This document shows, piece after piece, positions 19,489 through 53,994 of a stretch of 64,000 nucleotides of DNA. Numbering within the stretch: position 1 is the stretch's first letter; each line of letters starts with the position of its first letter. Both the position numbers and the translations under genes were made by a program. A model generated the notes under the pieces. That model saw only the letters and a list, made by a program, of their open reading frames with translations. It ran no database searches and was not told the origin of the DNA. Source of the DNA: Chryseobacterium gleum (lineage in GTDB: Bacteria; Bacteroidota; Bacteroidia; Flavobacteriales; Weeksellaceae); contig NZ_LR134289.1 of assembly GCF_900636535.1 (NCBI RefSeq), positions 682,001 to 746,000 of the forward strand, written 5' to 3'.

Positions 19489-19500
19489 GCCTTTTTTAAA

Positions 19501-19596
19501 TTTTGGCTGAAGCCAATTTTATCATAAACAATCAATAGAAGCGGGCTTTAGCCCGTTTTAATAAATAAATATAAATTTTAATGGCTTTAGCCGAAA
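19501..19596. repeat. GGCTTTAGCC-type inverted-repeat element
   Basis: Outer arms TTTTGGCTGAAGCCA (19501-19515) and TGGCTTTAGCCGAAA (19582-19596) match as an inverted repeat at 13 of 15 positions. Between them is a hairpin CGGGCTTTAGCCCG (19542-19555). The pattern is like dispersed palindromic elements of Flavobacteriia genomes (from memory). Confidence 0.6.
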
Positions 19597-19631
19597 CTTA
19601 ACAAAGGGTAATCGGGTTAGGAATAAATAAA

Positions 19632-19666
19632 AAAAACCTTTTTGAGCTACGCCCAAAAAGGTTTTT
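19632..19666. terminator. Bidirectional terminator between esterase and oxygenase genes
   Basis: A long stem (AAAAACCTTTTTG with CAAAAAGGTTTTT) and a 9-nt loop with A/T runs on both flanks. It serves the esterase gene (plus) and the oxygenase gene (minus). Confidence 0.85.
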
Positions 19667-19704
19667 GATTGATTGAATGTTCAAAAAGTTACCCCATCAG
19701 CATC

Positions 19705-20802
19705 TTAAAAATGTTGAAAGTTTTTACCCAGATGTTCTTCTATGACAAAAAAAGGATCTTCTGTAAGGGTATGTGCTCTCATATCAATAAGGCTCACTTT
19801 ACTCATCATCCGAAGCATAATTCTTCGTTCGCACGGCTGTTCTATACCGTCAATATTTCTTACTCCCGCACGGAAAGCAGATCTTCCGTGAGCACATAAA
19901 TGATTATTAACCAGAATAACATCTCCGGCCTGAGGCGTAAATCCTGAATAAATCAAATGTCTGGCTTCTTCCCAGAACTCATGCAGTGTATGCTGCGCTT
20001 CTTCTGACTGTCTGATACTGGAATTGAAAAGCTGTTCCGCCGCATCAAATCGCATAAAAGGAAGGTTGGTATTTCCATACAATACAGAATCCAGAGTTTC
20101 TTCTTCATTTTCTCCCGTTTCCAGATTGGCATCTTTAGGGATTTTATAAATAGGCTCAAAAAGTGTCCTGTACTTTTCCCCAATAGACTCATGAGAACGG
20201 ATAGAATAAAGAGTTGAAGGTACCTGCTCTTCATTTCGGACATACATAAAGCTTAAAAAGTCAGCCTGATGTTTCAGAAAAGCATCTTCTGTATGTACAT
20301 ACAGATCCGTTGAGGATCCTGATCCTGTCTGTGTTTCTTTCATTTTTTCATCAGGAATAATAGCGTGGATCAATCCACCGCCTTTACGCTGTGAATAATA
20401 TTGTACAGGCTTTGAGGGAAGTGCCCCATGAATAAGCGCACACGCAAAACCATATAAATTAAACTTTGAATAATCTGCCGATTGCCAGTTGGGTGGAGTA
20501 GAACCTATTTCTTCCTGGTCTATCTCCATCAATCCTGTAAAAACCAGCGCTCCATACTGATTTTCAGAAAAGTCACTTGCAAAATCAGCTGCTATATTTA
20601 GAATCCTTTCCGGAAGAAAATAAGAGGCCAGTTGATGAACATGTTTTATAAAATCCCGGTTTTCATAAGTGCCATATTTTTTCTGAAGATGCAGCGCTGC
20701 ATCTTTTATCATTCTTCTCTCCTGAGAAGTGACTTCTATGACCGTAGGAAGCAGCTTTACTGCTGTTAAACAGTCTTTATCTAAAATTTGTGTAGAATTC
20801 AT
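19705..20802 (-). CDS. Fe(II)/2-oxoglutarate oxygenase, clavaminate-synthase-like (candidate lysine 4-hydroxylase)
   Basis: A 365-residue non-haem iron, 2-oxoglutarate-dependent oxygenase of the clavaminate-synthase/AsnO family, which hydroxylates free amino acids. The iron triad is His170-x-Glu172 (YVHTEDAF) plus a distal His in NHLCAHGR (His305), with Arg307 and the ERR at 325-327 placed to bind 2-oxoglutarate. The family uses Glu in place of the usual Asp, as seen here. Known members include lysine 3- and 4-hydroxylases from Flavobacterium and Chitinophaga. It is divergent from the siderophore operon across 217 bp, facing a PLP decarboxylase of the lysine type, so I infer it makes hydroxylysine as a siderophore precursor. 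If the hydroxyl goes to C4, decarboxylation gives 3-hydroxycadaverine. The family call is firm; the substrate is inference. Confidence 0.85.
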   Translation of the reverse strand: MNSTQILDKDCLTAVKLLPTVIEVTSQERRMIKDAALHLQKKYGTYENRDFIKHVHQLASYFLPERILNIAADFASDFSENQYGALVFTGLMEIDQEEIGSTPPNWQSADYSKFNLYGFACALIHGALPSKPVQYYSQRKGGGLIHAIIPDEKMKETQTGSGSSTDLYVHTEDAFLKHQADFLSFMYVRNEEQVPSTLYSIRSHESIGEKYRTLFEPIYKIPKDANLETGENEEETLDSVLYGNTNLPFMRFDAAEQLFNSSIRQSEEAQHTLHEFWEEARHLIYSGFTPQAGDVILVNNHLCAHGRSAFRAGVRNIDGIEQPCERRIMLRMMSKVSLIDMRAHTLTEDPFFVIEEHLGKNFQHF

Positions 20803-20833
20803 TAAAAAAAATTTTATGTTAAATAATAATTTT

Positions 20834-20861
20834 TATCTTTGTTTTTAATTATTCTAAATAA
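20834..20861 (+). promoter_or_regulatory. Candidate promoter and Fur-like dyad of the siderophore operon
   Basis: TATCTTTG (20834-20841) matches the -7 box TAnnTTTG. Six bases after it begins a dyad TTATT-CTA-AATAA (20849-20861), where transcription should start. On the other strand the site reads TTATTTAGAATAATT, which looks like half of an iron-regulator (Fur) box. A -33 TTG is not obvious. The implied 5' leader is about 170 nt. The site is in the divergent gap and could also control the oxygenase gene. Confidence 0.4.
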
Positions 20862-21019
20862 CAATAGCCGAATCAAATTTAGTAATAATTACGTAATCAC
20901 CAAATAAAAGTATAATAAAAAATGAAAAATTTAAAAAACTGACTTACAGATATATACAACAATATATCACAAAAACCACAACAACTCACAGATTAAAAAA
21001 ATCACATTACAAAACATTT

Positions 21020-22546
21020 ATGAACAACAATTTAACATCCCTGGAAGCACTCACCAGCAAAACTTCACACCACATTTCAGGGAATTTTGGAAATATTTTC
21101 CATCCTGACAATTATGATCATTATCGTAATGCTGTCAACAGTACTTTAGACCTGGTTCAGGAATTTCTTCAGAGAAACAACAAACCTTTCAGTGGTATAG
21201 AAGCTAAAACAATGAAGGGAATGGTACAACAGATCGACCTTAATCAAAAACTTTCCAATTATAATGAGCTTCTGGCAGAGGTAGATGATATTTATGTAAA
21301 GCATGCCACAGCTTTTCATCTTCCACAATACGTAGCTCACCTTAACTGTCCTATAGTAATCCCGGCGTTGGCAGGAGAAATTCTTGTAAGCGCCATTAAT
21401 TCTTCACAGGACACTTATGATCAGAGTGCCGGAGGAACTTTTATGGAAAGAAAACTGATCGATTGGACTGCCGGTCAGATTGGATATAATACGAATGAAA
21501 GCGACGGAGTTTTCACTGCAGGGGGCTCACAGAGTAATTTAATGGGATTAGTCATGATGCGTGACTGCTTTTCCCAGAAAAGATACAATCACAATATTAA
21601 AATGGAGGGTCTGCCGGCAGAGGCAAGCCGTTTCAGGATATTTGTTTCCGATAAATCTCACTTCAGCAATCTGAAAAATGCTTCCATTATGGGATTGGGC
21701 GAGAAAAGTATTGTTAAAGTTCCGACCGATGAGCGTTTCCGTATGGATATTTCTCTTTTAAAGAAATATATAAAGAGAGAAGAACAACTGGGAAACATCC
21801 CTATTGGTATTGTAGCAACAGCTGGAACTACAGACTTTGGAAATATCGATCCATTGGATGATATCGCGAATATTGCAGAACAATATAATATCTGGATGCA
21901 CGTAGATGCAGCTTACGGTTGTGCTTTATTATTAAGCGAGAAATACCGTGACCTGATCAATGGTATTGAAAGAGCAGACTCCGTAACAATTGATTATCAC
22001 AAATCATTTTTCCAGCCGATCAGCAGCAGTGCTTTCATTGTTAAAAATAAAAAAGAACTGTTGATTCTTAAACACCACGCCGATTATCTGAATCCGAAAG
22101 AAATGGATGAAGAGGAGATTCCGGCACAGATCAATAAATCCATTACACAAAGTACCCGAAGATTTGATGCGTTAAAACTTTGGTTTACTCTAAGAATGAT
22201 GGGTAAAGAACAGCTGGCAGAATATACAGACACGGTGATTGATCTTACCAAAGATGCAGCCGCAATGATTACGGAAGATGCAGATTTTGAACTTCTTTCA
22301 GATTCTGACTTAAGCGTCCTTGTTTTCAGATATGTAAGACCGGAAATCAGTGATCTGAATGCTCTGAATCTATACATCAAGATGAAACTGTTCTACAGTG
22401 GAGAAATCCTTGTCGCCAGTACAAAGGTTGATGGAAATTTCTATCTGAAGTTTACATTCCTGAACCCGATTACCACTACAGAAGATATTCATCAGATTCT
22501 CACCACAATCAAAAAGCATGGAAAAGACTTTAATTCAGAAAAGTAG
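21020..22546 (+). CDS. PLP-dependent decarboxylase (group II; lysine/hydroxylysine or diaminobutyrate type)
   Basis: A 508-residue pyridoxal-phosphate decarboxylase of the aromatic-amino-acid/glutamate (group II) family. The cofactor lysine is Lys328 in DYHKSF; FTAGGSQSNLMGL (165-177) binds the phosphate, and HVDAAYG (294-300) holds the Asp that pairs with the ring nitrogen. Close relatives in siderophore loci decarboxylate lysine (DesA-like) or 2,4-diaminobutyrate. It is the first gene of the siderophore operon and its last 29 bp overlap the next gene. With the divergent oxygenase it would supply a hydroxylated cadaverine; cadaverine itself is the alternative. Confidence 0.88.
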   Translation: MNNNLTSLEALTSKTSHHISGNFGNIFHPDNYDHYRNAVNSTLDLVQEFLQRNNKPFSGIEAKTMKGMVQQIDLNQKLSNYNELLAEVDDIYVKHATAFHLPQYVAHLNCPIVIPALAGEILVSAINSSQDTYDQSAGGTFMERKLIDWTAGQIGYNTNESDGVFTAGGSQSNLMGLVMMRDCFSQKRYNHNIKMEGLPAEASRFRIFVSDKSHFSNLKNASIMGLGEKSIVKVPTDERFRMDISLLKKYIKREEQLGNIPIGIVATAGTTDFGNIDPLDDIANIAEQYNIWMHVDAAYGCALLLSEKYRDLINGIERADSVTIDYHKSFFQPISSSAFIVKNKKELLILKHHADYLNPKEMDEEEIPAQINKSITQSTRRFDALKLWFTLRMMGKEQLAEYTDTVIDLTKDAAAMITEDADFELLSDSDLSVLVFRYVRPEISDLNALNLYIKMKLFYSGEILVASTKVDGNFYLKFTFLNPITTTEDIHQILTTIKKHGKDFNSEK

Positions 22547-24926
22547 AACAGAAGAAAAAGCCAGGGAAATTACCTTCAGGATTTTGTTAAATGGAATGCT
22601 GAGAGAACTAGGCAACGGAAAATTCTATCAGGGTGTTCCGAAATATGATCTCCTTACAGCAAAGGCTCTTCAGAACAGTGATTATTCATTGTTTATGAGA
22701 TTTGAAATGAAGAAAAGCGGGCTGTTTTTATTTGCTCCGGTTTCCTATCGTTCCGAAACTCTTTTTCATGAATACGGACCTGTTTTGTGGGCGGTAGATC
22801 ATCAAAACCAAGAAGTTTTTGAAGTGAATGATCAAAAACTTACTGAATTGGTTTACAAAGAACTTTCCGAAACTACAAACGAAACGGGTTTCAGAAACTT
22901 TGTGGAAAGAATTCAAAGCAGCTTAAGAAATCTGGAACTGACAACAGAAGCTTGTCTTCAGGATGATCAGCTGTTGACGTATTCTTTCCTTGAATCTGAG
23001 CAAATGCTTCCGGCAGGACACAATCTGCATCCTTTCACCAAATCAAGAATGGGATTCTCTGAGGAAGAACAGCTTTTATACGGCCCGGAATTCGGAAAAG
23101 GATTTCAGCTGGATTATTTCCTGATTCATAAAGACTGCATCACGGAGAAGTCACTTCCGGGAATTTCAGCAAAAGAAATCTTCGAGAAATGGACTTCTTT
23201 ACCGGAAAGCTACGATTTTGAAAACATTAATGATTTTTACATCGTTCCATGCCATCCATGGGAGGCACAATATCTTTTATCAACAGCAGAATATCCGGAA
23301 ATGTTAGGTTCTGGGAAAATCATCCACATCGGACCATTGGGAGAAGATTTTTATGCAACATCTTCCATAAGAACGGTATACAACCCTGATTTCAGCTGGA
23401 TGTTGAAATTCTCTCTGCATGTTTTAATGACAGGTTCTGTGAGAACAAACAGCTTAAAAGATCTCAACAGAGGATATGCTTCCGCAATATGGTGGCAGCA
23501 TCAAAAAACTTCATTTGAACAAAGCTTCCTGAATTTTAAATTATTGCTGGAACCTTCCACACTAAGCGTTCATTATGATGGAAAAAATATAGACAGTCTG
23601 AATATACTGCTCCGTGAACATCCTTTTTCCAATGAAGATAAAGTAATTTTATTAGCAAGACTTTGCCAGGATGAATCTACAGATGGGTTTAATTTTACGA
23701 CGCATTTCTTTAAAAATGTTGCGAGTCAATTAGGTGTAGATGCAGAAAAAGCAGCTATTATCTGGTTTGAAAAGTATGTAAACCTATTGCTTTCTCCTTT
23801 AAACAGGTTGTATGATCAATTAGGTATGGCTCCTGAAGTTCATCAGCAGAATTTGCTTGTACAGCTGGATAATCAATTGCTTCCTGAGTCTATTTATGTA
23901 AGAGACGGGCAAGGGTATTTAATCAAAGAAAGCTTTAAAGAAAAATATGAATCTCTGATTAAAGATTATCCTGAAGTAGATGATCTTTTCATCAGGGACG
24001 AGCGTCTTCTGGATATTGTTTCTCACCATCTTCTGGTAAGCAACCTGAGTGCACTGATTGCTTCCATAGGTAAAACAGGTCTGGTTAAAGAAAGAAGATT
24101 AATCCATATTCTGTACAGAGAGTTTGAAAATCTTCATGAAACTGAACCTTCCTCATTAACGGATTATGCTTTGAATCAAAGATATTGGGCTGTAAAATCA
24201 AATCTTCATTCTGCGGTTGCTGATGTAGACGGAGGCGTGAATGCTTCTTCTATTTCATATGCTAAAGTTCCGAACCTTCTTCACAAACATTTCTTTTCGG
24301 ATCAGTTAATTAATCCGCAGGGAACAGAAGTTTTCTTTAAAAGATACTTTCAGAAAGAGGATGTGACGATGAGTATGCGTCCTATAGATCTTGAAAATGA
24401 TCTTGAAATGCTTCATGAATGGTTCAACCGTGAACATGCCGTAAAAATCTGGCAGATGAACTGGCCTATTGATGAGCTGGAAACCTACTACAGACTGATG
24501 CTTCCAAGTGATGAAGCACACAGTTATATCATCGCAGGAAACGATGAACCTTCTTGTAATATTGAGGTGTATTGGGCTTGCAGAGATATCGTAGGCGATT
24601 ATTACGAAGTATTGCCAACCGATTATGGAACGCATCAGTTTATTGCACCAGTTGATCCTAAAAAGAAATTTGTATCTCCATCCACTCAATCTATGGTTGA
24701 CTATGTTTTTGCACAGCCACAGGTAGGAAAAATGGTAGGCGAAGGATCTGTAGACTCGCTTGCTTCTATGATGAATAAAGCCCATGTAGGCTTCAAAGTA
24801 GATAAAGTAATAGAAATGCCTCATAAAAAAGCCAATCTGAACTTCTGTTACAGAGAATGGTACTGGGAAAAATTCCCACAGAATAAAGAGGTACAAATCA
24901 CCACAAACATCACAAAAAATGACTAA
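22518..24926 (+). CDS. NIS siderophore synthetase (IucA/IucC) fused to a siderophore GNAT acyltransferase
   Basis: An 802-residue two-domain enzyme. Residues about 1-600 are an IucA/IucC NRPS-independent siderophore synthetase, which adenylates a carboxylate such as citrate and joins it to an amine or alcohol: HPFTKSRMGF, IVPCHPWEAQYLL, and SSIRTVYNPDFSWMLKFSLHV match the ATP-binding core. Residues about 615-795 are an acyltransferase of the IucB/AlcB/RhbD type (MSMRPIDLENDLEMLHEWFNRE, IWQMNWP, SCNIEVYW, KVIEMPHKKANLNF), which acylates N-hydroxy-amines. These are separate proteins in aerobactin and alcaligin systems. The start ATG is inside the decarboxylase gene (29-bp overlap), and the stop overlaps the monooxygenase start by 8 bp, so translation is coupled. 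Confidence 0.92.
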   Translation: MEKTLIQKSRTEEKAREITFRILLNGMLRELGNGKFYQGVPKYDLLTAKALQNSDYSLFMRFEMKKSGLFLFAPVSYRSETLFHEYGPVLWAVDHQNQEVFEVNDQKLTELVYKELSETTNETGFRNFVERIQSSLRNLELTTEACLQDDQLLTYSFLESEQMLPAGHNLHPFTKSRMGFSEEEQLLYGPEFGKGFQLDYFLIHKDCITEKSLPGISAKEIFEKWTSLPESYDFENINDFYIVPCHPWEAQYLLSTAEYPEMLGSGKIIHIGPLGEDFYATSSIRTVYNPDFSWMLKFSLHVLMTGSVRTNSLKDLNRGYASAIWWQHQKTSFEQSFLNFKLLLEPSTLSVHYDGKNIDSLNILLREHPFSNEDKVILLARLCQDESTDGFNFTTHFFKNVASQLGVDAEKAAIIWFEKYVNLLLSPLNRLYDQLGMAPEVHQQNLLVQLDNQLLPESIYVRDGQGYLIKESFKEKYESLIKDYPEVDDLFIRDERLLDIVSHHLLVSNLSALIASIGKTGLVKERRLIHILYREFENLHETEPSSLTDYALNQRYWAVKSNLHSAVADVDGGVNASSISYAKVPNLLHKHFFSDQLINPQGTEVFFKRYFQKEDVTMSMRPIDLENDLEMLHEWFNREHAVKIWQMNWPIDELETYYRLMLPSDEAHSYIIAGNDEPSCNIEVYWACRDIVGDYYEVLPTDYGTHQFIAPVDPKKKFVSPSTQSMVDYVFAQPQVGKMVGEGSVDSLASMMNKAHVGFKVDKVIEMPHKKANLNFCYREWYWEKFPQNKEVQITTNITKND

Positions 24927-26235
24927 CGAAGTCGTATACAATGTAATAGGCATAGGGATTGGCCCTTTCAATCTGGGACTTGCCGCATTATCCAATCCGA
25001 TTCCGGAACTGAAAACCCTTTTCCTGGACCAGAGAGATGGTTTCGACTGGCATCCGGGACTGATGATTGACCATGTAACCCTGCAGACCCCATTTTTATG
25101 TGACTGCGTATCCATGGCTGATCCTACGAATCCTTTGAGCCTTTTGAATTACCTGAAAGAAACCGGAAGACTGTATAAGTTTTTTATCAGAGAAGATTTT
25201 TTCATTCCGAGAAAAGAATACAACCGTTACTGCCAATGGGTAATTGAACAGCTTCCACAATGCCGTTTCTCTACTCAGGTGGTGGATATTACTTATGAAG
25301 AGGGTTTATATCATGTAACTACGATTCACACCAAAACCAAAGAAACTACGGTTTTCAAAACGGAAAGACTTATTTTAGGTACAGGAACACAGCCTTACAT
25401 TCCTTCTTTCATTCCGAAGGATGATTCACGTGTTATTCATACAAGTTCTTATCTGTATAGAAAAGAAGAGCTTTTGTCTCAGGGTAAAAAAATAGCGATT
25501 ATCGGTTCTGGCCAGAGTTCAGCAGAAGTTTTTTATGATCTGCTTCAAAACAGGAATGAAGAAACACATCTGGGTTGGTATTCCCGTCCGGACAGATTTT
25601 TCCCCATGGAATATTCTAAGTTGACGCTGGAGCTTACATCCCCTGATTATGTAGAGTATTTCTACAACAGAAGTGAATCCGCAAGGAAAACCATTTTAAG
25701 CAAGCAGCAAGCTCAGTTTAAAGGAATCAATTACGATCTGATCAATGATATCTATGATTTTATTTATGATCTGAATATCGATAATGCTGATCCTAATCTT
25801 AAAATTATCCCTAACAGCCAGCTGAATAGAGTAGACAACAGCAATCCGGATTTCATCAATCTTGAATTTACCCAACTGGAACAGGAAGTACCTTATGATC
25901 AGGAAGCGGATTATCTGATTTTGGGAACCGGATACCGCTATCATGAACCTGCATTCTTACAAAATATTCAGGATAGAATCAAAAGAGATTCCAGCGGATT
26001 GTTTGATGTCAACAGAAATTATTCAATAGACCACAACGGAGGCGAAATCTATGTGCTTCATGCTGAAGTACACACCCACAGCTATATTTCTACAGATCTG
26101 GGAATGGCTGCGTACCGTAATTCCTACATCATCAATGATATTCTGGGAAGAGAGTATTATAAAATTGAAAAGAAAATTGCTTTCCAGGATTTCGATGTAG
26201 AAAAATATGCTGATTTACCAACTGCCAAACTTTAA
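24919..26235 (+). CDS. Amine/lysine N-hydroxylase (IucD/AlcA-like FAD monooxygenase)
   Basis: A 438-residue flavin N-monooxygenase that adds a hydroxyl group to a primary amine to create the future hydroxamate. The FAD motif is GIGIGPFNLGLAAL (about 8-21), the NADPH motif IAIIGSGQSSAEV, and the C-terminal part holds LILGTGYRYHEPAF and HTHSYISTDLGMAAYRN. The length matches IucD/AlcA/RhbE. In this operon the substrate is most likely (hydroxy)cadaverine and not lysine, because a decarboxylase gene comes first. Eight-bp overlap upstream and a 6-bp gap downstream place it in the operon. Confidence 0.93.
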   Translation: MTNEVVYNVIGIGIGPFNLGLAALSNPIPELKTLFLDQRDGFDWHPGLMIDHVTLQTPFLCDCVSMADPTNPLSLLNYLKETGRLYKFFIREDFFIPRKEYNRYCQWVIEQLPQCRFSTQVVDITYEEGLYHVTTIHTKTKETTVFKTERLILGTGTQPYIPSFIPKDDSRVIHTSSYLYRKEELLSQGKKIAIIGSGQSSAEVFYDLLQNRNEETHLGWYSRPDRFFPMEYSKLTLELTSPDYVEYFYNRSESARKTILSKQQAQFKGINYDLINDIYDFIYDLNIDNADPNLKIIPNSQLNRVDNSNPDFINLEFTQLEQEVPYDQEADYLILGTGYRYHEPAFLQNIQDRIKRDSSGLFDVNRNYSIDHNGGEIYVLHAEVHTHSYISTDLGMAAYRNSYIINDILGREYYKIEKKIAFQDFDVEKYADLPTAKL

Positions 26236-26241
26236 TTAAAA

Positions 26242-28053: not shown

Positions 28054-29453
28054 GGAAATTCCTGCATATCCTAAAAGAAGGAGCGGTTTTTACGTATGGA
28101 GCCATAGCCGGAAAGAAAGTTGAACTCACTTCCGGAAGTATCAACCGTTCCATCTTTAGTCTTGCCATTCCCATGGTGATGGAACTTGTCATGGAATCTG
28201 TTTTTGTAAGCGTCAATCTATTGATTATCGCAAAATTAGGCGACAAGGTTCTTGGGCTTGTGGGAATTACAGATAACTACATCAACTTTGCCTATGCCAT
28301 TGCAGTAGGTTTGGGAATTGCAGCAGCAACCCTTACCGCCAGAAGAGCAGGCGAAAAAGATCAAGAAGGAATGGGAAGAACAGCCCAATACATCATCTTG
28401 CTGGCCCTGTTTTTTGCAGTGCTTATTGGTGGGGTTTCCTACTTTTTCGCATCAGAAATCGTTGATTTTCTGGGAATCAATGCCAGTACGGTAAATGAAG
28501 GAATTTCTTTCTCAAGACTGGTCTTTCTCAGTATCGGACTGGTGATTCTCCGTCTTTCTGTGAATGGACTTTTCAGAGGAGCCGGTGATGCCGATATTGC
28601 CATGAAATCACTTTGGATCTGCCATATTTCCAATATCATTTTTGCAGTGATCCTTGTTTTTGGATTAGGATTTATTCCTGCTTTTGGATTGATGGGATTG
28701 GCGTATGCTACAGTTTTATCAAGGCTTTTAGGGGTTTTATATCAGGCTTTCGTATTTGCCACAGGAAAAACCAGTATCAGTATCAGAGTTCCTTTACAGC
28801 TTGATATTCCATTGCTGCAGAAGATTCTGAAACTCACCTTTGGAGGATTGGTTCAGTATATTATCCCAACATCCAGCTGGCTGATTATGGTGAAGATCAT
28901 CTCCACTTTCGGAACTACAGCGCTTGCAGGATATATTATTGCCCAGCGTATTGCTTCGGTGGCAACAATGCCTGCCTGGGGAATAGGAAATGCTGCCGGA
29001 GTTCTTACAGGTCAGAATCTGGGTGCCGGAGAACCTGAACGTGCTGAAAAAACGGTCTGGAGAGCCGGAACCATCAATATGACGTATCTGGTACTTGTAG
29101 CCTTATTCTGGCAGATTGCAGCGGAATATGTGGTGAAATTTTTCACTACAGAACCGGAAGTTGCCAGATATGCGGTTCAATACATCCATGTGGTATCCAT
29201 GGCGTATCTGCTGTTAGGATTCACTATGGTGATCAGCCGCGCTTTGAATGCCGCCGGAAACATTCTACAGGTTACATTACTGTACCTCGTGATGTTTTAT
29301 GTGATTCAGCTTCCGCTGGCTTATCTCTTAGGAGTAAGATTTCAGTGGGAACTGAGAGGAATATTTACCGCTATCGTTTCTTCGGAAATAGTTTTGGCTG
29401 TACTATTCCTCATGATTTTTAAAAATGGAAAATGGAAAACTATAAAAATTTAA
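28050..29453 (+). CDS. MATE-family efflux transporter, likely siderophore exporter
   Basis: A 467-residue MATE transporter with about 12 membrane segments in two repeats: SINRSIFSLAIPMVMELVMES, VNLLIIAKLGDKVLGLVG, then in the second half LTFGGLVQYIIPTSSWLIMVKI and GQNLGAGEPERAEKTVWRAG, the conserved MATE loop. It is cation-coupled and in the inner membrane. It sits inside the siderophore operon, overlapping the NIS gene by 4 bp and 1 bp ahead of the ACP gene. By position it most likely exports the finished siderophore; major facilitators do this more commonly. Confidence 0.88.
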   Translation: MRKFLHILKEGAVFTYGAIAGKKVELTSGSINRSIFSLAIPMVMELVMESVFVSVNLLIIAKLGDKVLGLVGITDNYINFAYAIAVGLGIAAATLTARRAGEKDQEGMGRTAQYIILLALFFAVLIGGVSYFFASEIVDFLGINASTVNEGISFSRLVFLSIGLVILRLSVNGLFRGAGDADIAMKSLWICHISNIIFAVILVFGLGFIPAFGLMGLAYATVLSRLLGVLYQAFVFATGKTSISIRVPLQLDIPLLQKILKLTFGGLVQYIIPTSSWLIMVKIISTFGTTALAGYIIAQRIASVATMPAWGIGNAAGVLTGQNLGAGEPERAEKTVWRAGTINMTYLVLVALFWQIAAEYVVKFFTTEPEVARYAVQYIHVVSMAYLLLGFTMVISRALNAAGNILQVTLLYLVMFYVIQLPLAYLLGVRFQWELRGIFTAIVSSEIVLAVLFLMIFKNGKWKTIKI

Positions 29454-29454
29454 A

Positions 29455-29700
29455 ATGAACACTACAGAAGAATTTTACGAAATTATCGCCTCTGCCATCG
29501 CCATAAAGAAAGAATTGGTAGATGAAAAACTAACCTATCAGGAAATCCCGGAATGGGATTCTATGTCTCATCTTCTTATCGTAGAAGCGCTTGAACAGTT
29601 TTATCAGATCAAGTTTGATTTTAACGATATTCTGGAGATGGGAACCGTCGGAAAAATTCGCGAAAAAATGAAAAAATACGATGTATTCGTAGAAAACTAA
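29455..29700 (+). CDS. Acyl carrier protein
   Basis: An 81-residue acidic carrier protein. The phosphopantetheine attachment motif is WDSMSHL with Ser in the usual DS position, then IVEALEQFYQIKFDFNDI as helices II-III. It begins 1 bp after the MATE stop and ends 4 bp before the ligase gene. Carrier proteins are unusual in NRPS-independent siderophore operons. With the adjacent AMP-forming ligase it probably carries the acyl group that the GNAT domain transfers to the N-hydroxy-amine. Confidence 0.9.
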   Translation: MNTTEEFYEIIASAIAIKKELVDEKLTYQEIPEWDSMSHLLIVEALEQFYQIKFDFNDILEMGTVGKIREKMKKYDVFVEN

Positions 29701-29704
29701 GCCT

Positions 29705-31093
29705 ATGAAAATTTTAGAAAATGTAATTGCCAATAAGAAACTGGCGTTTACAGATGCTTCCACCGGTACAACAATACCGGTGGGAACACTGTACCGGTCT
29801 TTAGGTTTAAACCCCGTAGAAAAAGGGCTGCTCTTTTTATACAATGACAATCAGTTGTCAAGTATTGAAGTGCTGCTCAATTTTTACGGAACAGCACATA
29901 CCATTGCGGTATTGGGGCAGAAACTACATGAGGAATTCAAAGAACGTATTGAGGCAGAATACCGTCCGAAATACATATTTGATCCACAGAGAGAAGCCAT
30001 TGAAGGATACACTCTGAAAGCATTTTCAGACCATATCAGTATCTTTACAAAGGATGATTATAGGAGTGAGGTTACCATTCATCCTGAGATTAAAATCCTT
30101 TTGAGTACTTCAGGGACAACAGGTGTTCCGAAACTGGTTAAATTATCTGATGAAAGCCTTTATCAGAACGCATTGAGCATCCTTCAGTATATGCCGGTTC
30201 AGAGAACGGATGTAGTTCCTTTAAATGTTCCGATCAACTTCGTATATGGATTCTCTATTTTCACCACTAACTGTATGCGTGCCAGAAGAATCGTGTGTAC
30301 AGATAAAGACATTATGCAGAAAGCATTCTGGGATGAAATGGAGGAGTATGGCTACAGTACTTTGGGCGGAGTCCCTTTCCTTTATGAAAATCTGAACAGA
30401 ATTGGATTTTTCAGAAAAGATTCTCCAAGTCTCAGATATTTTACCCACACCGGAGGCGTGATTAATGCAGAGTTGAGAAAAACGATTTTCTCTTATTGTC
30501 ATGAGTTTAAAAAAGAATTCTTTGCACAATACGGACAAACGGAAGCAGGAGGAAGAATGGCTTATCTAACCACAGAAGGATTGCTGGAAGAAGAAACATC
30601 AATCGGAAATGTGGTAGAAAAAGGAAGCTTCAAAATTGATCCTGAAACGGACGAATTACTGTTTTCTCATGTCAGTATTTTCGGAGGCTATGCCCATAAA
30701 CTGGAGGATCTTGCCACTTATGAGCAGCCTTCCGTACTGCATACCGGGGATACCGCCAGAAAAGGTGAGAACGGAATTTATTATATCACAGGTAGAATAA
30801 AGCGTATCATGAAGCTTTTCGGAATACGTCTTAATCTGGATGAGGTAGAATTTATCCTTAAAAATGAAATGCGGGGCAATACTTTCGTATGTCTGAATGC
30901 CAATGATAAAAAAATCGTGGTATTGTATGACAATCCGGAAATAGATCCTCATATCATCACCGAAACCATTAAAAATAAACTGCGTATTAACCCCCAATAT
31001 GTACGCACAGAACGTATAGAATCATTCCCATTATCACAAAACGGTAAAATAAACTATCCCCTGTTACAAAACTTACAGCATGAAAACATCTAA
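29705..31093 (+). CDS. AMP-forming acyl ligase (adenylate-forming enzyme)
   Basis: A 462-residue adenylation enzyme. The ATP P-loop is ILLSTSGTTGVPKLVKLS; other core motifs are YGQTEAGGRMAY, HTGDTARKGENGIYYITGRIKRIMKLFG with the hinge region, and a final Lys in PLSQNGKINYPLL. It is somewhat shorter than typical CoA ligases (500-550), as stand-alone ACP-loading ligases can be. It most likely activates a small carboxylate and loads it on the neighbouring ACP. The recalled chryseochelin structure suggests fumarate; acetate or succinate are alternatives. Its last 14 bp overlap the receptor gene. Confidence 0.88.
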   Translation: MKILENVIANKKLAFTDASTGTTIPVGTLYRSLGLNPVEKGLLFLYNDNQLSSIEVLLNFYGTAHTIAVLGQKLHEEFKERIEAEYRPKYIFDPQREAIEGYTLKAFSDHISIFTKDDYRSEVTIHPEIKILLSTSGTTGVPKLVKLSDESLYQNALSILQYMPVQRTDVVPLNVPINFVYGFSIFTTNCMRARRIVCTDKDIMQKAFWDEMEEYGYSTLGGVPFLYENLNRIGFFRKDSPSLRYFTHTGGVINAELRKTIFSYCHEFKKEFFAQYGQTEAGGRMAYLTTEGLLEEETSIGNVVEKGSFKIDPETDELLFSHVSIFGGYAHKLEDLATYEQPSVLHTGDTARKGENGIYYITGRIKRIMKLFGIRLNLDEVEFILKNEMRGNTFVCLNANDKKIVVLYDNPEIDPHIITETIKNKLRINPQYVRTERIESFPLSQNGKINYPLLQNLQHENI

Positions 31094-33497
31094 AACCCTT
31101 ATATTACTTCTTGGTCTTACTTTATCTTCCAACTCGCTTTCTGCACAGCAGGGCGACAGAATTCATGGCAAAATCATGCTGTCTGAAAAAGCACCGGTAA
31201 AAAACGCTGTTTTAAGACTTGTCAACACGTCTTATCAGGCAAAAACCAATAATTTAGGAGAATATTACTTTGAAAATGTGCCACCTGGAGAATATACGCT
31301 TCAGGTGGTTTTAAATGACATCGAACTGATGAGGGAACCCATCCACATTCAGAAAGATGTCTATGAAATCCCTGCGATCTACGCTCCTTTACACAACAAT
31401 GTGATTGAAGGAATTACCGTATATGCAGTGAGCAGAAATAAATTTTTGGATAAAGACAGTACTTCAGTGGCTAAAATGCCTCTGAAAGTGCTTGAAAATC
31501 CACAGGCTTATACCAGCATCAACCAGCAGATCATGAAGGAACAGCTTACTTACGATATTTCGGAAGTACTGAAAAACGTTCCGGGTATGGTAAAAATGCA
31601 GGGTAGCCCGGGAAGAGGTTCCGGAGACGGAAGTTTCTACTACAGCCTTAGAGGTTTTCCTACCAAAGTATCCATGGTAGATGGTGTTCCTGCAACCACC
31701 AACGGAGAGATAGATCCTGCCGATCTTGAGCGTCTTGAAGTGATCAAAGGACCTTCAGGAACATTGTACGGAGGTGCGGTAACTTCCTTTGGAGGTTTGA
31801 TTAACGCAGTAACCAAAAAACCGAAAGACTATTTCGGAGGCGAGGCTTCTTATCTGATGGGAAGCTACAACCTGAACCGCGTAACCGCTGATGTGTACGG
31901 ACCAATGACAGAATCCAGAAATATGTTATTCCGTTTAAATGCAGCGTATCAGTATCAGAACGGATTCAGGGATTCTGAATTCAGGAAGTCTTTCTTTGTG
32001 GCTCCTACAATAAGCTATCAGGTGAATGACAGATTGAAATTTAATTTGGGAGCCCAAATCTACAATTATGAAGGAACCAATACGCCGATTATTTTCCTTC
32101 CGAGAACAAGAGCCTATTTTGCCCATAATCCTGATGAACTGGGCTTCGACTGGAAAAAGTCTTATTCTAATAATGATATTACTTTAAAAGCACCTTCGAT
32201 CAATGTAAAAGCAGAAGCAAATTACAAAATTTCAGATCAATGGACTTCACAGACTTTGCTTTCAAGAAACTTCAGAAAAACAGAAGGATTATACCAATAT
32301 CAGTTTATCAGGGGAAATACAAGTGATGCCATGCTGGAACGCAATGTGCAGTGGCAGAACTCAGAAGCTTCTTCTACAAGTATTCAGCAAAACTTTAATG
32401 GAGAGTTTAATATTGGAAAAATTAAAAACAAAGTATTGATAGGGTTAGATTATTTAAACCAATCTATCAACAACAACCATTCCCCGATTGTGGTGTACGA
32501 CAATATCAACGGGCAAACTTTAGCAGGTTATGCCAATATCACAAGAGATCTTGTACTGCAGAAAATCCAGACGTCTACAGCTCCTCTGGTAAGAAATAGT
32601 TCTGCATCAAACCTTTATGGAGCCTATATTTCAAACGTTACTTATATTACAGACCGTTTGATTACGCTTTTAAGCTTACGTATGGATCACTATGAAAGTA
32701 AAGGACAGCTTAACCTGAATACCAATATCCGTAACGATGATTTCAATCAAACTGCATGGTCTCCGAAAGTAGGTATTGTATATCAGATTCTTAAAGACCA
32801 GTTATCTGCCTATGGTAATTATATGAATGGTTTCAGCTATACAGCACCTGTTGCGCAGCAGCTTCCGGACATTAGCGGAGATATGAAACCACAGATGGCC
32901 AATCAGTGGGAAGTAGGAATCAAGGGAAATCTTTGGAGAAACAAAGTGAACTTCACGGTTGGATACTACGATATTCTTGTGGATAATATCCAGAGAGGAA
33001 GCGGTGTAATCCGCGACGGAAAAGAATACAATATTGTTGTTCAGGATGGAACACAAAGAAGTAAAGGGATTGAAATCGAAACCATCATGAATCCTGTTCA
33101 GGGATTAAACATCATAGCCGGATACAGCTATAATCACAGCAGATATGAAAAAGCTGATCCTGCTGTAGATGGGCGCCGTCCGGAATCTGCAGGTCCTGCC
33201 AATGTATTCAATTCATGGATCAGTTATATCCTTCCGATCAAAGGACTACAGGGACTTGGAATTGGTTTCGGGGTAAACCGCGTAGGAAAACAGATTACCG
33301 GAAATAAAACTGTTACCGGACAGTTTGCATTCCCAGCCTATACCTTAGTGAATGCTTCCATTTCTCTCGAAAAAGAAAGATACAGATTAGGATTTAAAAT
33401 GAATAACCTGGGAAATGCACAATATTTTGCAGGGCAGGGAGTGGTAGTCGCTCAGATGCCTCGCAATTTCGTTGCTGAGGTAAGCTTTAAATTTTAA
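31080..33497 (+). CDS. TonB-dependent siderophore receptor
   Basis: An 805-residue outer-membrane receptor. Signal peptide (MKTSKTLILLLGLTLSSNSLSA), then a carboxypeptidase-regulatory-like beta domain (about 25-105: AVLRLVNTSYQAKTNNLG, PPGEYTLQV), a plug domain (LPLK-like MPLKVLENPQAYTSIN, YDISEVLKNVPGMV, DPADLERLEVIKGPSGTLYGG), and a 22-strand barrel ending in the expected Phe (VAEVSFKF). It belongs to the FhuA/FoxA-like TonB-siderophore class and should import the ferric form of the operon's own product. The start lies within the ligase gene. Confidence 0.93.
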   Translation: MKTSKTLILLLGLTLSSNSLSAQQGDRIHGKIMLSEKAPVKNAVLRLVNTSYQAKTNNLGEYYFENVPPGEYTLQVVLNDIELMREPIHIQKDVYEIPAIYAPLHNNVIEGITVYAVSRNKFLDKDSTSVAKMPLKVLENPQAYTSINQQIMKEQLTYDISEVLKNVPGMVKMQGSPGRGSGDGSFYYSLRGFPTKVSMVDGVPATTNGEIDPADLERLEVIKGPSGTLYGGAVTSFGGLINAVTKKPKDYFGGEASYLMGSYNLNRVTADVYGPMTESRNMLFRLNAAYQYQNGFRDSEFRKSFFVAPTISYQVNDRLKFNLGAQIYNYEGTNTPIIFLPRTRAYFAHNPDELGFDWKKSYSNNDITLKAPSINVKAEANYKISDQWTSQTLLSRNFRKTEGLYQYQFIRGNTSDAMLERNVQWQNSEASSTSIQQNFNGEFNIGKIKNKVLIGLDYLNQSINNNHSPIVVYDNINGQTLAGYANITRDLVLQKIQTSTAPLVRNSSASNLYGAYISNVTYITDRLITLLSLRMDHYESKGQLNLNTNIRNDDFNQTAWSPKVGIVYQILKDQLSAYGNYMNGFSYTAPVAQQLPDISGDMKPQMANQWEVGIKGNLWRNKVNFTVGYYDILVDNIQRGSGVIRDGKEYNIVVQDGTQRSKGIEIETIMNPVQGLNIIAGYSYNHSRYEKADPAVDGRRPESAGPANVFNSWISYILPIKGLQGLGIGFGVNRVGKQITGNKTVTGQFAFPAYTLVNASISLEKERYRLGFKMNNLGNAQYFAGQGVVVAQMPRNFVAEVSFKF

Positions 33498-33499
33498 GG

Positions 33500-34687
33500 A
33501 TGAAATTAAAGTTGAGAAAAATTGCCTATCAGCTACATCTATGGCTCGGACTCACGTCCGGGCTTATCGTTGTTATTATGGCAGCTACCGGATGTATCCT
33601 TTCTTTTGAAGAAGAATTAAAACATATTGTTTATCCCAACAGATATTTTGTTGAAAATATTGGCAGACAAAAACTTTCATTGTCTGAGCTCACGGAAAAA
33701 GCAGAAAAAGCACTTCCTGAAGGATTGAAAGTCAAAAGGGTAGTCATGCCTTCCGATCCCTCACGAACCTATATATTCCGTACCTTAAAAATGGATAACG
33801 AAGCATGGACGTATTGGGGAACTTATCTTTATTATTATCGGATTTACGTAGATCCTTACACAGGAAAAGTACAGGAAGTGGAAGATGCAAAAAAAGACTT
33901 CTTCGAAATTATACTGGATCTTCACCGAAGACTTCTGCTGGGGGAGAAAATCGGAAAAGCGATTACCAGTTATTCCACATTGATATTTGCAGTCATCCTT
34001 TTATCTGGGCTTGTGATATGGTATCCCCGAAAAATGAGTAAAGCCATGCTGAAAGGAATGTTTTTTATTAAAATATCGGCCAATTGGAAAAGAATCAACT
34101 ATGATGCTCATAATGTCTTAGGATTTTATGCCATCATTCCTTTACTCTTAATATCTTATTCTGCATTGATATGGAGCTTTGAAGATGTAGATCAATGGGT
34201 AAAGAACACACTGAACGGAAACATTCCAACAGAAAAGCAAGTCAAAAGTACAATTCCTTCCGAAAAATTTTCAAACCGTGAAAATATCCTCAATCTCATT
34301 GGAAATACCATGAAAAAAGGATTAAAAGACAAAAAATCAGCACTTGTCAATTTTCCAAGATCGGAAGAAGGAACCTATTATGCTGAGCTGACTTATGACG
34401 GCAGGCAATACAGGAATGAACATTTTAATTTTGATCAATATTCAGGAGAAGTTTTAAAATCTCAATCATATAAAAGTAAAAATATCGGATATGGAACCGC
34501 ATTAAGAGAAAGAAATTATGATCTTCACACCGGAAGTATCTTGGGAATAACGAGCAGAATCATTTATTTTCTGGCAGCAATGATCGCAACATCACTTCCC
34601 ATCACTGGTTTTATCATCTATTTAAATAGAAAAAAGAAGAAACCAAAACATAAGAAAAACAAAATAGTTTATCCTTCTCATCATTAA
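33500..34687 (+). CDS. PepSY-associated TM-helix protein (candidate siderophore-iron reductase)
   Basis: A 395-residue inner-membrane protein with four or five membrane helices and PepSY domains: QLHLWLGLTSGLIVVIMAATGCILSFEEE at the start, then DLHRRLLLGEKIGKAITSYSTLIFAVILLSGLVIWYPRK, NYDAHNVLGFYAIIPLLLISYSALIWSF, and a last helix before a Lys-rich tail. Conserved His pairs in the helices (LHLW, LHRR, DAHN, DLHTG) suggest haem binding; relatives near siderophore receptors (FoxB-like) reduce or release iron. It is the last gene of the operon, 2 bp after the receptor, with a terminator directly behind. Confidence 0.85.
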   Translation: MKLKLRKIAYQLHLWLGLTSGLIVVIMAATGCILSFEEELKHIVYPNRYFVENIGRQKLSLSELTEKAEKALPEGLKVKRVVMPSDPSRTYIFRTLKMDNEAWTYWGTYLYYYRIYVDPYTGKVQEVEDAKKDFFEIILDLHRRLLLGEKIGKAITSYSTLIFAVILLSGLVIWYPRKMSKAMLKGMFFIKISANWKRINYDAHNVLGFYAIIPLLLISYSALIWSFEDVDQWVKNTLNGNIPTEKQVKSTIPSEKFSNRENILNLIGNTMKKGLKDKKSALVNFPRSEEGTYYAELTYDGRQYRNEHFNFDQYSGEVLKSQSYKSKNIGYGTALRERNYDLHTGSILGITSRIIYFLAAMIATSLPITGFIIYLNRKKKKPKHKKNKIVYPSHH

Positions 34688-34688
34688 T

Positions 34689-34720
34689 AAAAGCCTCTGT
34701 AAAGGGGCTTTTACTTTTTT
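34689..34720 (+). terminator. Terminator of the siderophore operon
   Basis: A 10-bp stem AAAAGCCTCT / AGGGGCTTTT with one wobble and a 4-nt loop, followed by ACTTTTTT, directly after the PepSY gene stop codon. Confidence 0.88.
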
Positions 34721-34721
34721 A

Positions 34722-34896
34722 AACCACAAAAGTCACAAAAGATTTATTTTAACCGTTTAAATAAGTTTAAAATAATACCGCAGAACAGTTCATATAAGAT
34801 GAAAATCAAAGATTTTCTAAAACTCAGGTGTACTTATTAAACGTAAAGCAGGCACTTAAAACGTAAGTGATCAAAACTTTTGTGCCTTTTGTGGTT
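34722..34896. repeat. MITE-like element with 20-bp terminal inverted repeats
   Basis: AACCACAAAAGTCACAAAAG (34722-34741) and CTTTTGTGCCTTTTGTGGTT (34877-34896) are inverted repeats with 1 mismatch in 20, bounding 175 bp without a gene. An inner hairpin CACTTA/TAAGTG lies near the right arm. No target-site duplication is evident. The element lies immediately after the siderophore-operon terminator. Confidence 0.6.
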
Positions 34897-34948
34897 AAAA
34901 ACAATTAATGTAGAAGATTATACAATTTCTATTTTAAATATTCTCAAT

Positions 34949-34981
34949 CAATTTTATCGCAGATAAAATCCTCGCGCCTTA
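34949..34981 (+). repeat. 33-nt dispersed repeat, copy 1
   Basis: This 33-nt segment contains the palindrome ATTTTATCGCAGATAAAAT. Its reverse complement recurs at 40135-40167 with 30 of 33 bases identical, so the two copies are in opposite orientation and flank the block from the MocR gene through bioB. Confidence 0.75.
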
Positions 34982-35037
34982 GAAACGCATTGTTTTGGAC
35001 ATTATTTGCGCCTTCGCGTTTTCCAACTAATAAATAA

Positions 35038-36552: not shown

Positions 36553-36594
36553 CCATCCGGCAATATACTACTTTTGACATCAAAATAAAAATCT

Positions 36595-49490: not shown

Positions 49491-49513
49491 TTAAATTCAT
49501 AAACATTTTTTTG

Positions 49514-49542
49514 AACAGAGCTTAACGGCTCTGTTTTTTTTT
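49514..49542 (+). terminator. Terminator of the integrase gene
   Basis: An 8-bp stem AACAGAGC / GCTCTGTT with a 6-nt loop, followed by a run of nine T residues. Confidence 0.9.
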
Positions 49543-50129: not shown

Positions 50130-50141
50130 AAATCAGAAAAA

Positions 50142-50534: not shown

Positions 50535-50579
50535 AAATAAGTATTCAATCAATTTTTTAAACATCAAAATTTTATCAAA

Positions 50580-53878: not shown

Positions 53879-53897
53879 ACTGCATATATTATGTGGA

Positions 53898-53931: not shown

Positions 53932-53994
53932 GGGGGAGAGTTCAGGGAAACCTACCGATAGTAATATCGATAAGGCGTCAGGAGCTTATCCCAC

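What the first reader, a model, noticed from the sequence alone, without database searches (positions are those of the whole stretch)
19705..34687. Complete locus for a citrate-hydroxamate siderophore with unusual building blocks (chryseochelin-like)
Ten genes cover precursor synthesis, assembly, export and import. Besides the usual NIS parts (decarboxylase, N-hydroxylase, acyltransferase, two IucA/IucC synthetases) there is an amino-acid hydroxylase and an ACP plus acyl ligase. From memory, chryseochelin A of Chryseobacterium contains citrate, 3-hydroxycadaverine and fumaric acid. The enzymes seen here account for each part: oxygenase and decarboxylase for hydroxycadaverine, ligase/ACP/GNAT for fumarate, two synthetases for citrate. 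I know of no gene-by-gene assignment for this compound, so the mapping is a prediction.
Basis: partly seen in the sequence, partly recalled or inferred. Interest (0 to 1): 0.82.

Follow-up and report, generated by a model that had tools for sequence, protein, structure and literature searches.

The report
Gene cluster for chryseochelin-type iron scavenger
A ten-gene cluster in a Chryseobacterium genome has the enzymes expected to build chryseochelin A, an iron-grabbing molecule whose structure is published, including a three-part unit that probably attaches fumaric acid; this is a prediction from sequence.

Summary
In detail: ten intact genes lie at 19705-34687. One correction: the acyltransferase is not a gene but the C-terminal domain of the first synthetase.

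The oxygenase is a close relative of L-lysine 4-hydroxylase KDO5, and only 4-hydroxylysine decarboxylates to 3-hydroxycadaverine. Decarboxylase, N-hydroxylase and second synthetase are nearest to desferrioxamine-type enzymes. The parts add up to C24H36N4O15, the published formula of chryseochelin A.

On the least certain step, fumarate: ligase and ACP occur with hydroxylase and both synthetases in 44 of 44 type I loci, and were not found in 13 of 13 type II loci that keep decarboxylase, N-hydroxylase and a synthetase-acyltransferase fusion. By identity the fusion is a mosaic: its acyltransferase half goes with ligase/ACP, its synthetase half does not. One relative lost the synthetase core but keeps acyltransferase, ACP and ligase. 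Two relatives without the hydroxylase keep ACP and ligase, which argues against a role only in chryseochelin C's fatty acid.

Product and fumarate are predictions; no chemistry was run. No published gene assignment was found in the library searched. New variant of a known kind.

The parts
19705..20802 (-). K4H: Fe(II)/2-oxoglutarate L-lysine 4-hydroxylase (KDO5 family), predicted to make 4-hydroxy-L-lysine
   Evidence: 6euo L-lysine 4-hydroxylase 474 bits. HxE...H triad and the equivalents of KDO5 D179 and R334 in 51 of 51; the KDO5 Tyr233 position is Leu in 45 of 45 sequences of the window's family.
20803..21019 (.). Divergent promoter region: + strand -7 element TATCTTTG at 20834-20841 (its -33 TTTG is TTTT in the window); - strand TTTG-N19-TAAATTTG at 20904-20874; between them a conserved inverted repeat TTATTCTAAATAA (20849-20861), a candidate shared operator
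   Evidence: window + 44 relatives. Promoter consensus recalled; 19-base site exact once in the genome, 4 two-mismatch sites, control 1; 2 of those 4 lie 70-80 bases upstream of a TonB-receptor frame, the other 2 by an FG-GAP protein and a methyltransferase.
21020..22546 (+). DC: PLP decarboxylase, 4-hydroxylysine to 3-hydroxycadaverine (predicted)
   Evidence: best solved relative 5o5c, putative desferrioxamine-pathway decarboxylase (456 bits).
22518..24926 (+). NISa-GNAT: IucA-like siderophore synthetase (about residues 1-600) fused to a GNAT N-acyltransferase (about 620-770)
   Evidence: IucA 146 bits; GNAT part matches DfoC, SidF, MbtK; the two halves differ in which relatives they resemble.
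24919..26235 (+). NMO: diamine N-hydroxylase
   Evidence: 6xbb (426 bits; named Monooxigenase in the table, taken as the cadaverine N-hydroxylase SsDesB from recall), 5o8p desferrioxamine pathway (421), putrescine N-hydroxylase (364).
26242..28053 (+). NISb: type C (DesD/DfoC/AlcC-like) siderophore synthetase
   Evidence: DfoC 425, DesD 400-407, alcaligin synthetase 370, IucC 250 bits.
28050..29453 (+). MATE exporter, predicted siderophore export
   Evidence: TIGR00797 210 bits, cut-off 147.
29455..29700 (+). ACP: stand-alone acyl carrier protein, phosphopantetheine site Ser36
   Evidence: PF00550 E 0.027, below cut-off. Ser36 in 57 of 57 orthologues.
29705..31093 (+). LIG: acyl-ACP ligase (AMP-forming), predicted fumaryl-ACP synthetase
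   Evidence: AMP-binding. K448 and core motif residues in 57 of 57.
31080..33497 (+). TonB-dependent siderophore receptor
   Evidence: TIGR01783 244 bits, cut-off 223.5.
33500..34687 (+). PepSY-TM membrane protein, possible ferric-siderophore reductase
   Evidence: PF03929 204 bits; role inferred from position only.

Best explanation
The locus makes, exports and re-imports chryseochelin A or a near relative. (1) K4H hydroxylates L-lysine at C4 and DC decarboxylates it to 3-hydroxycadaverine; because this diamine is symmetrical about C3, either amine can be used. (2) NMO N-hydroxylates one amine. (3) LIG adenylates fumarate and loads it on the stand-alone ACP; the GNAT half of NISa-GNAT moves the fumaryl group to the hydroxylamine, giving the hydroxamate arm C9H16N2O5. 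(4) NISa (IucA-like, type A) joins one arm to citrate and NISb (type C) joins the second; joining through the 3-OH would give the ester isomer chryseochelin B, which the structure paper proposes rearranges to A. (5) MATE exports; the TonB receptor and PepSY protein serve uptake and perhaps reduction. GNAT + ACP + LIG form a portable acylation unit that is inherited independently of the synthetase. Shown here: gene content, families, conservation, linkage, domain mosaic. Inferred: every substrate, the fumarate in particular, and the product.
For: K4H; a K4H from a same-type locus of genus g34 (probably Flavobacterium, see full report) matches 6euo at 727 bits over 360 residues; passages of PMC12930750 say KDO2-5 give (4R)-4-hydroxylysine. 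DC, NMO and NISb are nearest to desferrioxamine-type enzymes. Composition by hand: citrate + 2 N-hydroxy-3-hydroxycadaverine + 2 fumarate - 4 H2O = C24H36N4O15, the published formula; one arm protonated = C9H17N2O5+, a published fragment. Linkage: 44 of 44 type I loci have K4H, DC, NMO, NISa-GNAT, NISb, MATE, ACP and LIG; 13 of 13 type II stretches have DC, NMO and a 35-37% fusion but no K4H, ACP or LIG at E 1e-3. LIG is in 29 of 202 family genomes, each a type I genome. Mosaic: synthetase half window genus-g34 32%, g34-type II 47%; GNAT half 67% and 48%. L195 keeps GNAT, ACP and LIG without the IucA/IucC core. Two K4H-less genomes keep ACP and LIG.
Against: No chemistry. The producers of PMC9989332 were typed by 16S to genus only, so they are not tied to this locus by sequence. 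The position of KDO5 Tyr233, which a computational paper (PMC11066847, passages) proposes to steer C4 selectivity, is Leu in all 45 K4H of the window's family; that paper also says the Tyr-Asp couple is not conserved in the class. LIG has no specific fumarate relative; the six homologues examined outside these loci (30-40%) have none of the window's siderophore genes nearby except ACP-like frames, and the one looked at closely is in a glycan cluster. The GNAT clustering test (Fisher p = 0.04) used a region chosen after looking, on related sequences. In trees rooted at the window, type II falls inside the g34 group for NMO, synthetase half and GNAT alike, so the mosaic rests on identities, not on a resolved topology. 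LIG Arg284 is also in the six outside homologues, so it does not point to fumarate. Chryseochelin C's fatty acid is unexplained.
Confidence: 0.74

Rival explanations
1. LIG and ACP activate long-chain fatty acids for the acylated form chryseochelin C (as MbtM/MbtL do for mycobactin, recalled), while fumarate reaches the GNAT as fumaryl-CoA from general metabolism or by later oxidation of a succinyl arm.
For: Chryseochelin C carries fatty acids, and that paper cites a mycobactin gene-locus paper beside other amphiphilic siderophores. The GNAT has a weak match to MbtK (32 bits). LIG's best general models include acyl-CoA ligases.
Against: Fumarate fragments are reported for A, B and C, the fatty acid for one arm of C only and with many chain lengths. 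The amine that takes the fatty acid is free only if an arm is bound through its 3-OH, yet two genomes without K4H keep ACP and LIG. The locus has no second acyltransferase and no desaturase. ACP and LIG go with the GNAT domain.
Confidence: 0.12
2. A relative of chryseochelin with another small acid (for example succinate, malonate or a hydroxy acid) on the hydroxamate.
For: Sequence does not fix the ligase substrate. The LIG subfamily also occurs in a glycan cluster, perhaps with other acids. antiSMASH calls the C. herbae locus only NI-siderophore, 33% like fulvivirgamide (PMC10459008 passages).
Against: Succinyl-CoA or acetyl-CoA would need no dedicated ligase and ACP. The structure paper says no other Chryseobacterium siderophore had been characterised, and the chryseochelin parts match gene for gene.
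Confidence: 0.11
3. The DesD-like NISb condenses the free fumaryl carboxylates with amines, giving linear or cyclic fumaryl-hydroxycadaverine oligomers (desferrioxamine-like) instead of a citrate compound.
For: NISb is nearest to DesD/DfoC. L195 has two DesD-like synthetase frames and no IucA core.
Against: NISa is IucA-like (citrate type) and is present in 44 of 44 type I loci. The known product has free fumaryl carboxylates and citrate. Alcaligin synthetase and IucC are also within NISb's range.
Confidence: 0.03

Closest known systems
Chryseochelin A/B/C (Chryseobacterium CHR2, CHR5, CHR6; PMC9989332)
   Same: Citrate, two 3-hydroxycadaverine and two fumarate units: each has a matching enzyme here; same genus.
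   Different: A compound for which no genes were found in the papers searched; producer genomes not compared; the fatty acid of C has no gene here.
Desferrioxamine pathways (Dfo/Des)
   Same: DC, NMO and NISb are nearest to 5o5c, 6xbb/5o8p and DfoC/DesD; cadaverine logic; a synthetase-GNAT fusion exists (DfoC).
   Different: No lysine hydroxylase, IucA-type synthetase, ACP or ligase, and CoA acyl donors (recalled); in DfoC the GNAT is at the N-terminal end (chain coordinates).
Aerobactin / rhizobactin-type citrate hydroxamates (IucA-D, Rhb)
   Same: Type A plus type C NIS synthetases, N-hydroxylase and GNAT.
   Different: Hydroxylated diamine and, as predicted, an ACP-borne acyl donor; NISb is closer to DesD than to IucC.
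Mycobactin acyl unit MbtK/MbtL/MbtM (recalled)
   Same: Ligase + stand-alone ACP + GNAT acylating a lysine-derived hydroxylamine.
   Different: NRPS/PKS siderophore, long-chain acyl; here a small dicarboxylic acid is predicted and the GNAT is fused to an NIS synthetase.
KDO5 L-lysine 4-hydroxylase (PDB 6euo)
   Same: Same family; a g34 relative in a same-type locus matches it at 727 bits.
   Different: Tyr233 position is Leu in the window's family.

Membership tests
NIS citrate-hydroxamate siderophore pathway | Two IucA/IucC-family synthetases, one type A and one type C | tested here: met
   (by nearest solved relatives)
NIS citrate-hydroxamate siderophore pathway | Diamine N-hydroxylase and GNAT acyltransferase | tested here: met
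NIS citrate-hydroxamate siderophore pathway | Citrate as the backbone | not testable with these tools
   Inferred from the IucA-like synthetase
Chryseochelin pathway | Enzyme set able to make 3-hydroxycadaverine (lysine C4 hydroxylase + decarboxylase) | tested here: met
   by homology; regiochemistry not assayed
Chryseochelin pathway | Fumarate activation and transfer | tested here: inconclusive
   A ligase, ACP and GNAT linked as a unit; substrate unknown
Chryseochelin pathway | Production of m/z 621.22 siderophore dependent on the genes | not testable with these tools
   Needs culture and LC-MS
L-lysine 4-hydroxylase (KDO5/K4H) | Clavaminate-synthase-like family with HxE...H iron triad and 2OG arginine | tested here: met
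   (51 of 51)
L-lysine 4-hydroxylase (KDO5/K4H) | Tyr233-Asp179 couple proposed for C4 selectivity in KDO5 (the source paper says it is not conserved in the class, so it does not define the family) | tested here: not met
   Asp in 51 of 51; Tyr position is Leu in 45 of 45 of the window's family, Tyr in 8 of 10 of g34; paper passages
MbtK/L/M-type acyl-ACP hydroxamate unit | AMP ligase + stand-alone ACP + GNAT together | tested here: met
   44 of 44 type I loci fetched through the fusion; 12 of 12 g34 loci fetched through LIG or K4H; ligase and ACP not found in 13 of 13 type II stretches
MbtK/L/M-type acyl-ACP hydroxamate unit | Long-chain acyl substrate | not testable with these tools
   Argued against by the two K4H-less genomes

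The most novel reading that the evidence does not exclude
GNAT + ACP + LIG is a dedicated, portable fumaryl-ACP acylation unit, in which hydroxamate formation in an NIS siderophore uses an acyl-ACP in place of an acyl-CoA. It has been joined in nature to at least three synthetase arrangements: the Chryseobacterium NISa half, the different g34 NISa half, and two DesD-like synthetases. It also gives the KDO-type lysine 4-hydroxylases, used as biocatalysts, a natural role in siderophore synthesis.
Probability: 0.55. Interest if true: 0.66.

Novelty: new variant of a known kind. Interest (0 to 1): 0.52.

Why it matters
[quoted passage not shown] A gene-by-gene map makes producers predictable from genomes and each step testable. 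It offers a natural role for lysine 4-hydroxylases used as biocatalysts. If the ligase and ACP carry fumarate, hydroxamate siderophores have a swappable acyl unit, and the relatives found here are built-in contrasts: loci without the hydroxylase, without the ligase, or with exchanged synthetases.

Tried and rejected
AlphaFold2 of LIG with an alignment of 16 close sequences gave mean pLDDT 42, so no fold search was made. A ligase pocket reading was tried: Arg284 falls four residues after the motif glutamate (a pocket position by the recalled GrsA numbering) and is in 57 of 57 orthologues, but also in all six homologues outside siderophore loci, so it is not used as evidence for fumarate. His248 (56 of 57; Gln in those six) is a weaker hint of the same kind. 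A classical Fur-box pattern (recalled) gave one palindromic 3-mismatch hit at 21107-21125, inside the decarboxylase gene (counted on both strands, 3 of 100 shuffles reach it); not used. The esterase at 18676-19488 was considered as a chryseochelin B/C ester enzyme and set aside: an orthologue is in the fetched stretch of 32 of 44 type I loci and of 5 of 13 type II loci, so it belongs to the site rather than the cluster. The KASIII gene 17534-18511 was found in only 5 of 44 type I stretches. An apparent stop in one relative's fusion lies at residue 800 of 802 and means nothing. Paper searches for fumarate-activating ACP ligases, Fur boxes, and 4-hydroxylysine with siderophore gave nothing used.

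Rows set aside before counts: 6 of 64 matches were C-terminal only (DfoC-like) and were not typed. L053 was left out of the test. In one search intergenic stretches of 10 g34 loci were asked for and none passed the script's filter, so the promoter alignment is of the window's family only. Identity means and trees used 10 relatives of the window's genus (plus the window in trees), 10-11 g34 sequences (9 for K4H) and 7 type II sequences, not all loci; the 50-residue profile used 3, 4 and 3. Tree results against a clean reading: g34 is not a clade in the NMO, synthetase-half and GNAT trees when rooted at the window, because all 7 type II sequences fall inside; in the DC tree the g34 clade has support 0.18.
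Full report
Names. The window lies in a 5.6-Mb single-contig genome, G000. The window's genus g1 is taken as Chryseobacterium because all 43 named loci found with its ligase are Chryseobacterium and several contig lengths coincide with those of g1 genomes. Genus g34 is called Flavobacterium here only by inference: its lysine hydroxylase is very near KDO5, which PMC12930750 (passages) assigns to a Flavobacterium species.

Observation. Ten frames fill 19705-34687: hydroxylase K4H on the - strand, then DC, NISa-GNAT, NMO, NISb, MATE, ACP, LIG, TonB receptor and PepSY-TM on the + strand, mostly overlapping or a few bases apart. The acyltransferase is a domain of the first synthetase (PF04183 + PF06276 + PF13523), not a gene of its own.

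3-Hydroxycadaverine. K4H's best solved relative is L-lysine 4-hydroxylase 6euo (474 bits); arginine beta-hydroxylases reach 83 bits and the L-lysine 3-hydroxylase 6f2a 44 bits. Decarboxylation removes the carboxyl next to C2, so a C4 hydroxyl gives 1,5-diamino-3-pentanol, while C3 or C5 hydroxyls would give the 2-hydroxy isomer. The paper's 3-hydroxycadaverine thus requires lysine C4 chemistry. The iron triad and the equivalents of KDO5 Asp179 and Arg334 are in 51 of 51 sequences. A caution: the KDO5 Tyr233 position, given a role in C4 selectivity by computation (PMC11066847 passages), is Leu in 45 of 45 sequences of the window's family, and Tyr in 8, His in 1 and Phe in 1 of 10 g34 sequences. 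A g34 K4H from a same-type locus matches 6euo at 727 bits over 360 residues, so a lysine 4-hydroxylase of solved structure belongs to the branch found in these loci. PMC12930750 (passages) states that KDO2-KDO5 make (4R)-4-hydroxy-L-lysine. DC is nearest to a putative desferrioxamine-pathway decarboxylase (5o5c, 456 bits) and NMO to 6xbb and 5o8p (426 and 421 bits). PMC9288024 (passages) tested a Flavobacterium johnsoniae decarboxylase, FjdA, on 3-hydroxylysine and found 1.1% relative activity; its relation to DC was not tested here.

Backbone. NISa is IucA-like (146 bits); NISb is DfoC/DesD/alcaligin-synthetase-like (425-370 bits) before IucC (250 bits). This is the type A plus type C pair expected for a citrate bis-amide. 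The parts add up, by hand, to C24H36N4O15, the published formula of chryseochelin A, and one arm to the published fragment C9H17N2O5+ (PMC9989332: abstract, passages, sections 21 and 23 read).

Two kinds of locus in the family. In 246 genomes of the family, 64 match the fusion: 45 at 67-100% (type I, window included), 13 at 36-37% over nearly the whole length (type II), 6 over the C-terminal part only. I fetched the 44 other type I loci (43 from g1, one from genus g23) and the 13 type II loci. K4H, DC, NISa-GNAT, NMO, NISb, MATE, ACP, LIG and receptor are in 44 of 44 type I stretches. In 13 of 13 type II stretches DC (57-59%), NMO (51-53%) and the fusion (35-37%) are present and K4H, ACP and LIG are not found at E 1e-3; the only NISb-like match there overlaps the fusion itself. 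These are stretches of about 18 kb; genome-wide absence was seen only for the four type II genomes that fell in the other samples (G082, G165, G175, G177: no K4H at 1e-60, no LIG at 1e-40). LIG occurs in 29 of 202 family genomes, all 29 being type I genomes. In an order-wide sample, at E 1e-60, K4H occurs in 28 of 395 and the fusion in 33 of 395 genomes; all 28 are among the 33, the other five being four type II genomes and G487.

Genus g34. LIG is in 24 of 299 g34 genomes; all 24 have the GNAT match, 23 of them over nearly the whole fusion, and 22 have K4H. G487 and G1131 have no K4H match at E 1e-3 in the whole genome but keep DC, NISa-GNAT, NMO, NISb, MATE, ACP and LIG. Both are drafts (about 100 and 60 contigs), though the contig runs on past DC with other genes. 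G1085 (locus L195) keeps K4H, DC, NMO, MATE, ACP and LIG, but its fusion protein is only 461 residues: an N-terminal remnant and the GNAT, without the IucA/IucC core, and two DesD-like synthetase frames lie beside K4H.

The acyl unit. The two halves of the fusion protein resemble different relatives. Mean identities in the synthetase half: g1-g34 32%, g1-type II 32%, g34-type II 47%. In the GNAT half: 67%, 47%, 48%. In 50-residue steps the order changes at about residue 600, just before the GNAT domain. DC (63, 56, 58%) and NMO (53, 51, 57%) serve as yardsticks. So the GNAT half is alike wherever ACP and LIG are present, and the synthetase half is not. The argument rests on identities: trees are unrooted, type II forms one group in each (support 1.0 for GNAT), and when rooted at the window it falls inside g34 for NMO, synthetase half and GNAT. 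Among 57 GNATs with LIG, 13 type II and 7 others, 28 columns separate the first two groups. In a stricter test 7 of 7 changes peculiar to the LIG+ group lie at 740-775, against 2 of 8 peculiar to type II; Fisher p = 0.04 for 740-765. That segment binds CoA in GNATs as I recall; the region was chosen after looking and the sequences are related, so this is a hint only. ACP Ser36 and LIG Lys143, Glu280, Asp349, Arg364, Lys370 and Lys448 are in 57 of 57.

Fumarate or fatty acid. The structure paper reports dual fumaric acid appendages, and a fatty acid only on the amine set free when one arm is ester-linked through its hydroxyl. Loci without the hydroxylase cannot form that ester, yet keep ACP and LIG. 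The locus has one acyltransferase and no desaturase. Hence fumarate is the more likely cargo. The inference rests on two K4H-less genomes and on chemistry from other strains. Six LIG homologues outside these loci (30-40%) have none of the window's siderophore genes nearby except ACP-like frames in three; the one examined, L142, sits with glycosyltransferase, sugar aminotransferase, ACP, ketoreductase and LuxE/LuxC genes.

Regulation. The 217 bases between K4H and DC hold two opposed promoter-like elements of the Bacteroidota kind (consensus recalled; the + strand -33 element is not intact in the window) and between them a conserved inverted repeat TTATTCTAAATAA (window and 44 relatives). One operator could control both directions, which would make the - strand K4H part of the cluster's regulon. 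The 19-base site is exact once in the genome; of four two-mismatch sites (control 1) two lie 70-80 bases upstream of frames with TonB-receptor plug domains, and two beside an FG-GAP protein and a methyltransferase. This is weak support for iron control.

Site. The window locus and type II loci share chromosomal neighbours. An esterase orthologue lies in 32 of 44 type I and 5 of 13 type II stretches; MocR and BioF lie in 10 of 13 type II stretches and 39 of 43 named type I loci, two of the four misses being short loci. In L042 the gene order on both sides (GNAT, Crp-like, esterase; MocR, 207-residue protein, BioF) equals that of the window, apart from the KASIII gene, with a type II cluster in between. 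Two siderophore clusters thus occupy one site as alternatives.

Literature. Ten searches of open-licence PMC papers were made. No gene assignment for chryseochelin was found: of the 7 papers holding the word, I read parts of PMC9989332 and saw one passage each, a reference entry, of PMC11734721 and PMC12297923; the other four I saw in the listing only. In PMC9989332 itself a term search for gene, biosynthesis and antiSMASH showed no gene assignment in the passages returned. PMC10459008 (passages) reports an antiSMASH NI-siderophore region 6.1 in C. herbae at 239589-255146, 33% like fulvivirgamide. Locus L183, on the record numbered 6 of that strain, covers 241647-263032 with LIG near 251647, so, if region 6.1 is on that record, software has flagged this locus as an NIS cluster without a product. 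PMC11705823 and PMC11381245 were seen in passages and name no chryseochelin genes there. Baud 2014 and Hara 2017 I saw only as reference entries; two papers asked for by id were not held.

Verdict. An ordinary NIS framework with two uncommon additions that fit a known compound; the product link and the acyl unit are new predictions with good comparative support and no chemistry.

Noticed in passing
window 18676-38320 and L042 4098-17909: The site between an esterase gene and MocR/bioF holds either the K4H/LIG cluster (type I) or a smaller siderophore cluster without them (type II) in different genomes of the genus: alternative siderophore loci at one chromosomal site.
   Followed up: partly
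L195 10928-17679 and beyond: Locus of genus g34 (probably Flavobacterium) in which the IucA/IucC core of the fusion is missing and two DesD-like synthetase frames stand beside the lysine hydroxylase; suggests a different backbone with the same arms.
   Followed up: partly
L034-L046 (13 type II loci): Siderophore cluster with one NIS synthetase (fused to GNAT), decarboxylase, N-hydroxylase and no ACP or ligase found; product unknown.
   Followed up: partly
window 17534-18511: Stand-alone KASIII-like gene between Crp-like regulator and esterase, found in only 5 of 44 type I stretches.
   Followed up: no
window 48240-63979: Parts of a mobile element: tyrosine integrase, DUF932 protein, group II intron reverse transcriptase with HNH, ThiF-like protein, DUF4138 (conjugative-transposon TraN type, recalled) and TraM proteins.
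   Followed up: no
window 36595-37218: Conserved 207-residue protein between MocR and bioF without a significant Pfam match; found wherever bioF was found in the relatives' stretches.
   Followed up: no
L142 5589-13149: A LIG homologue (40%) with ACP, ketoreductase, LuxE- and LuxC-like proteins in a glycan cluster of another member of the order.
   Followed up: partly
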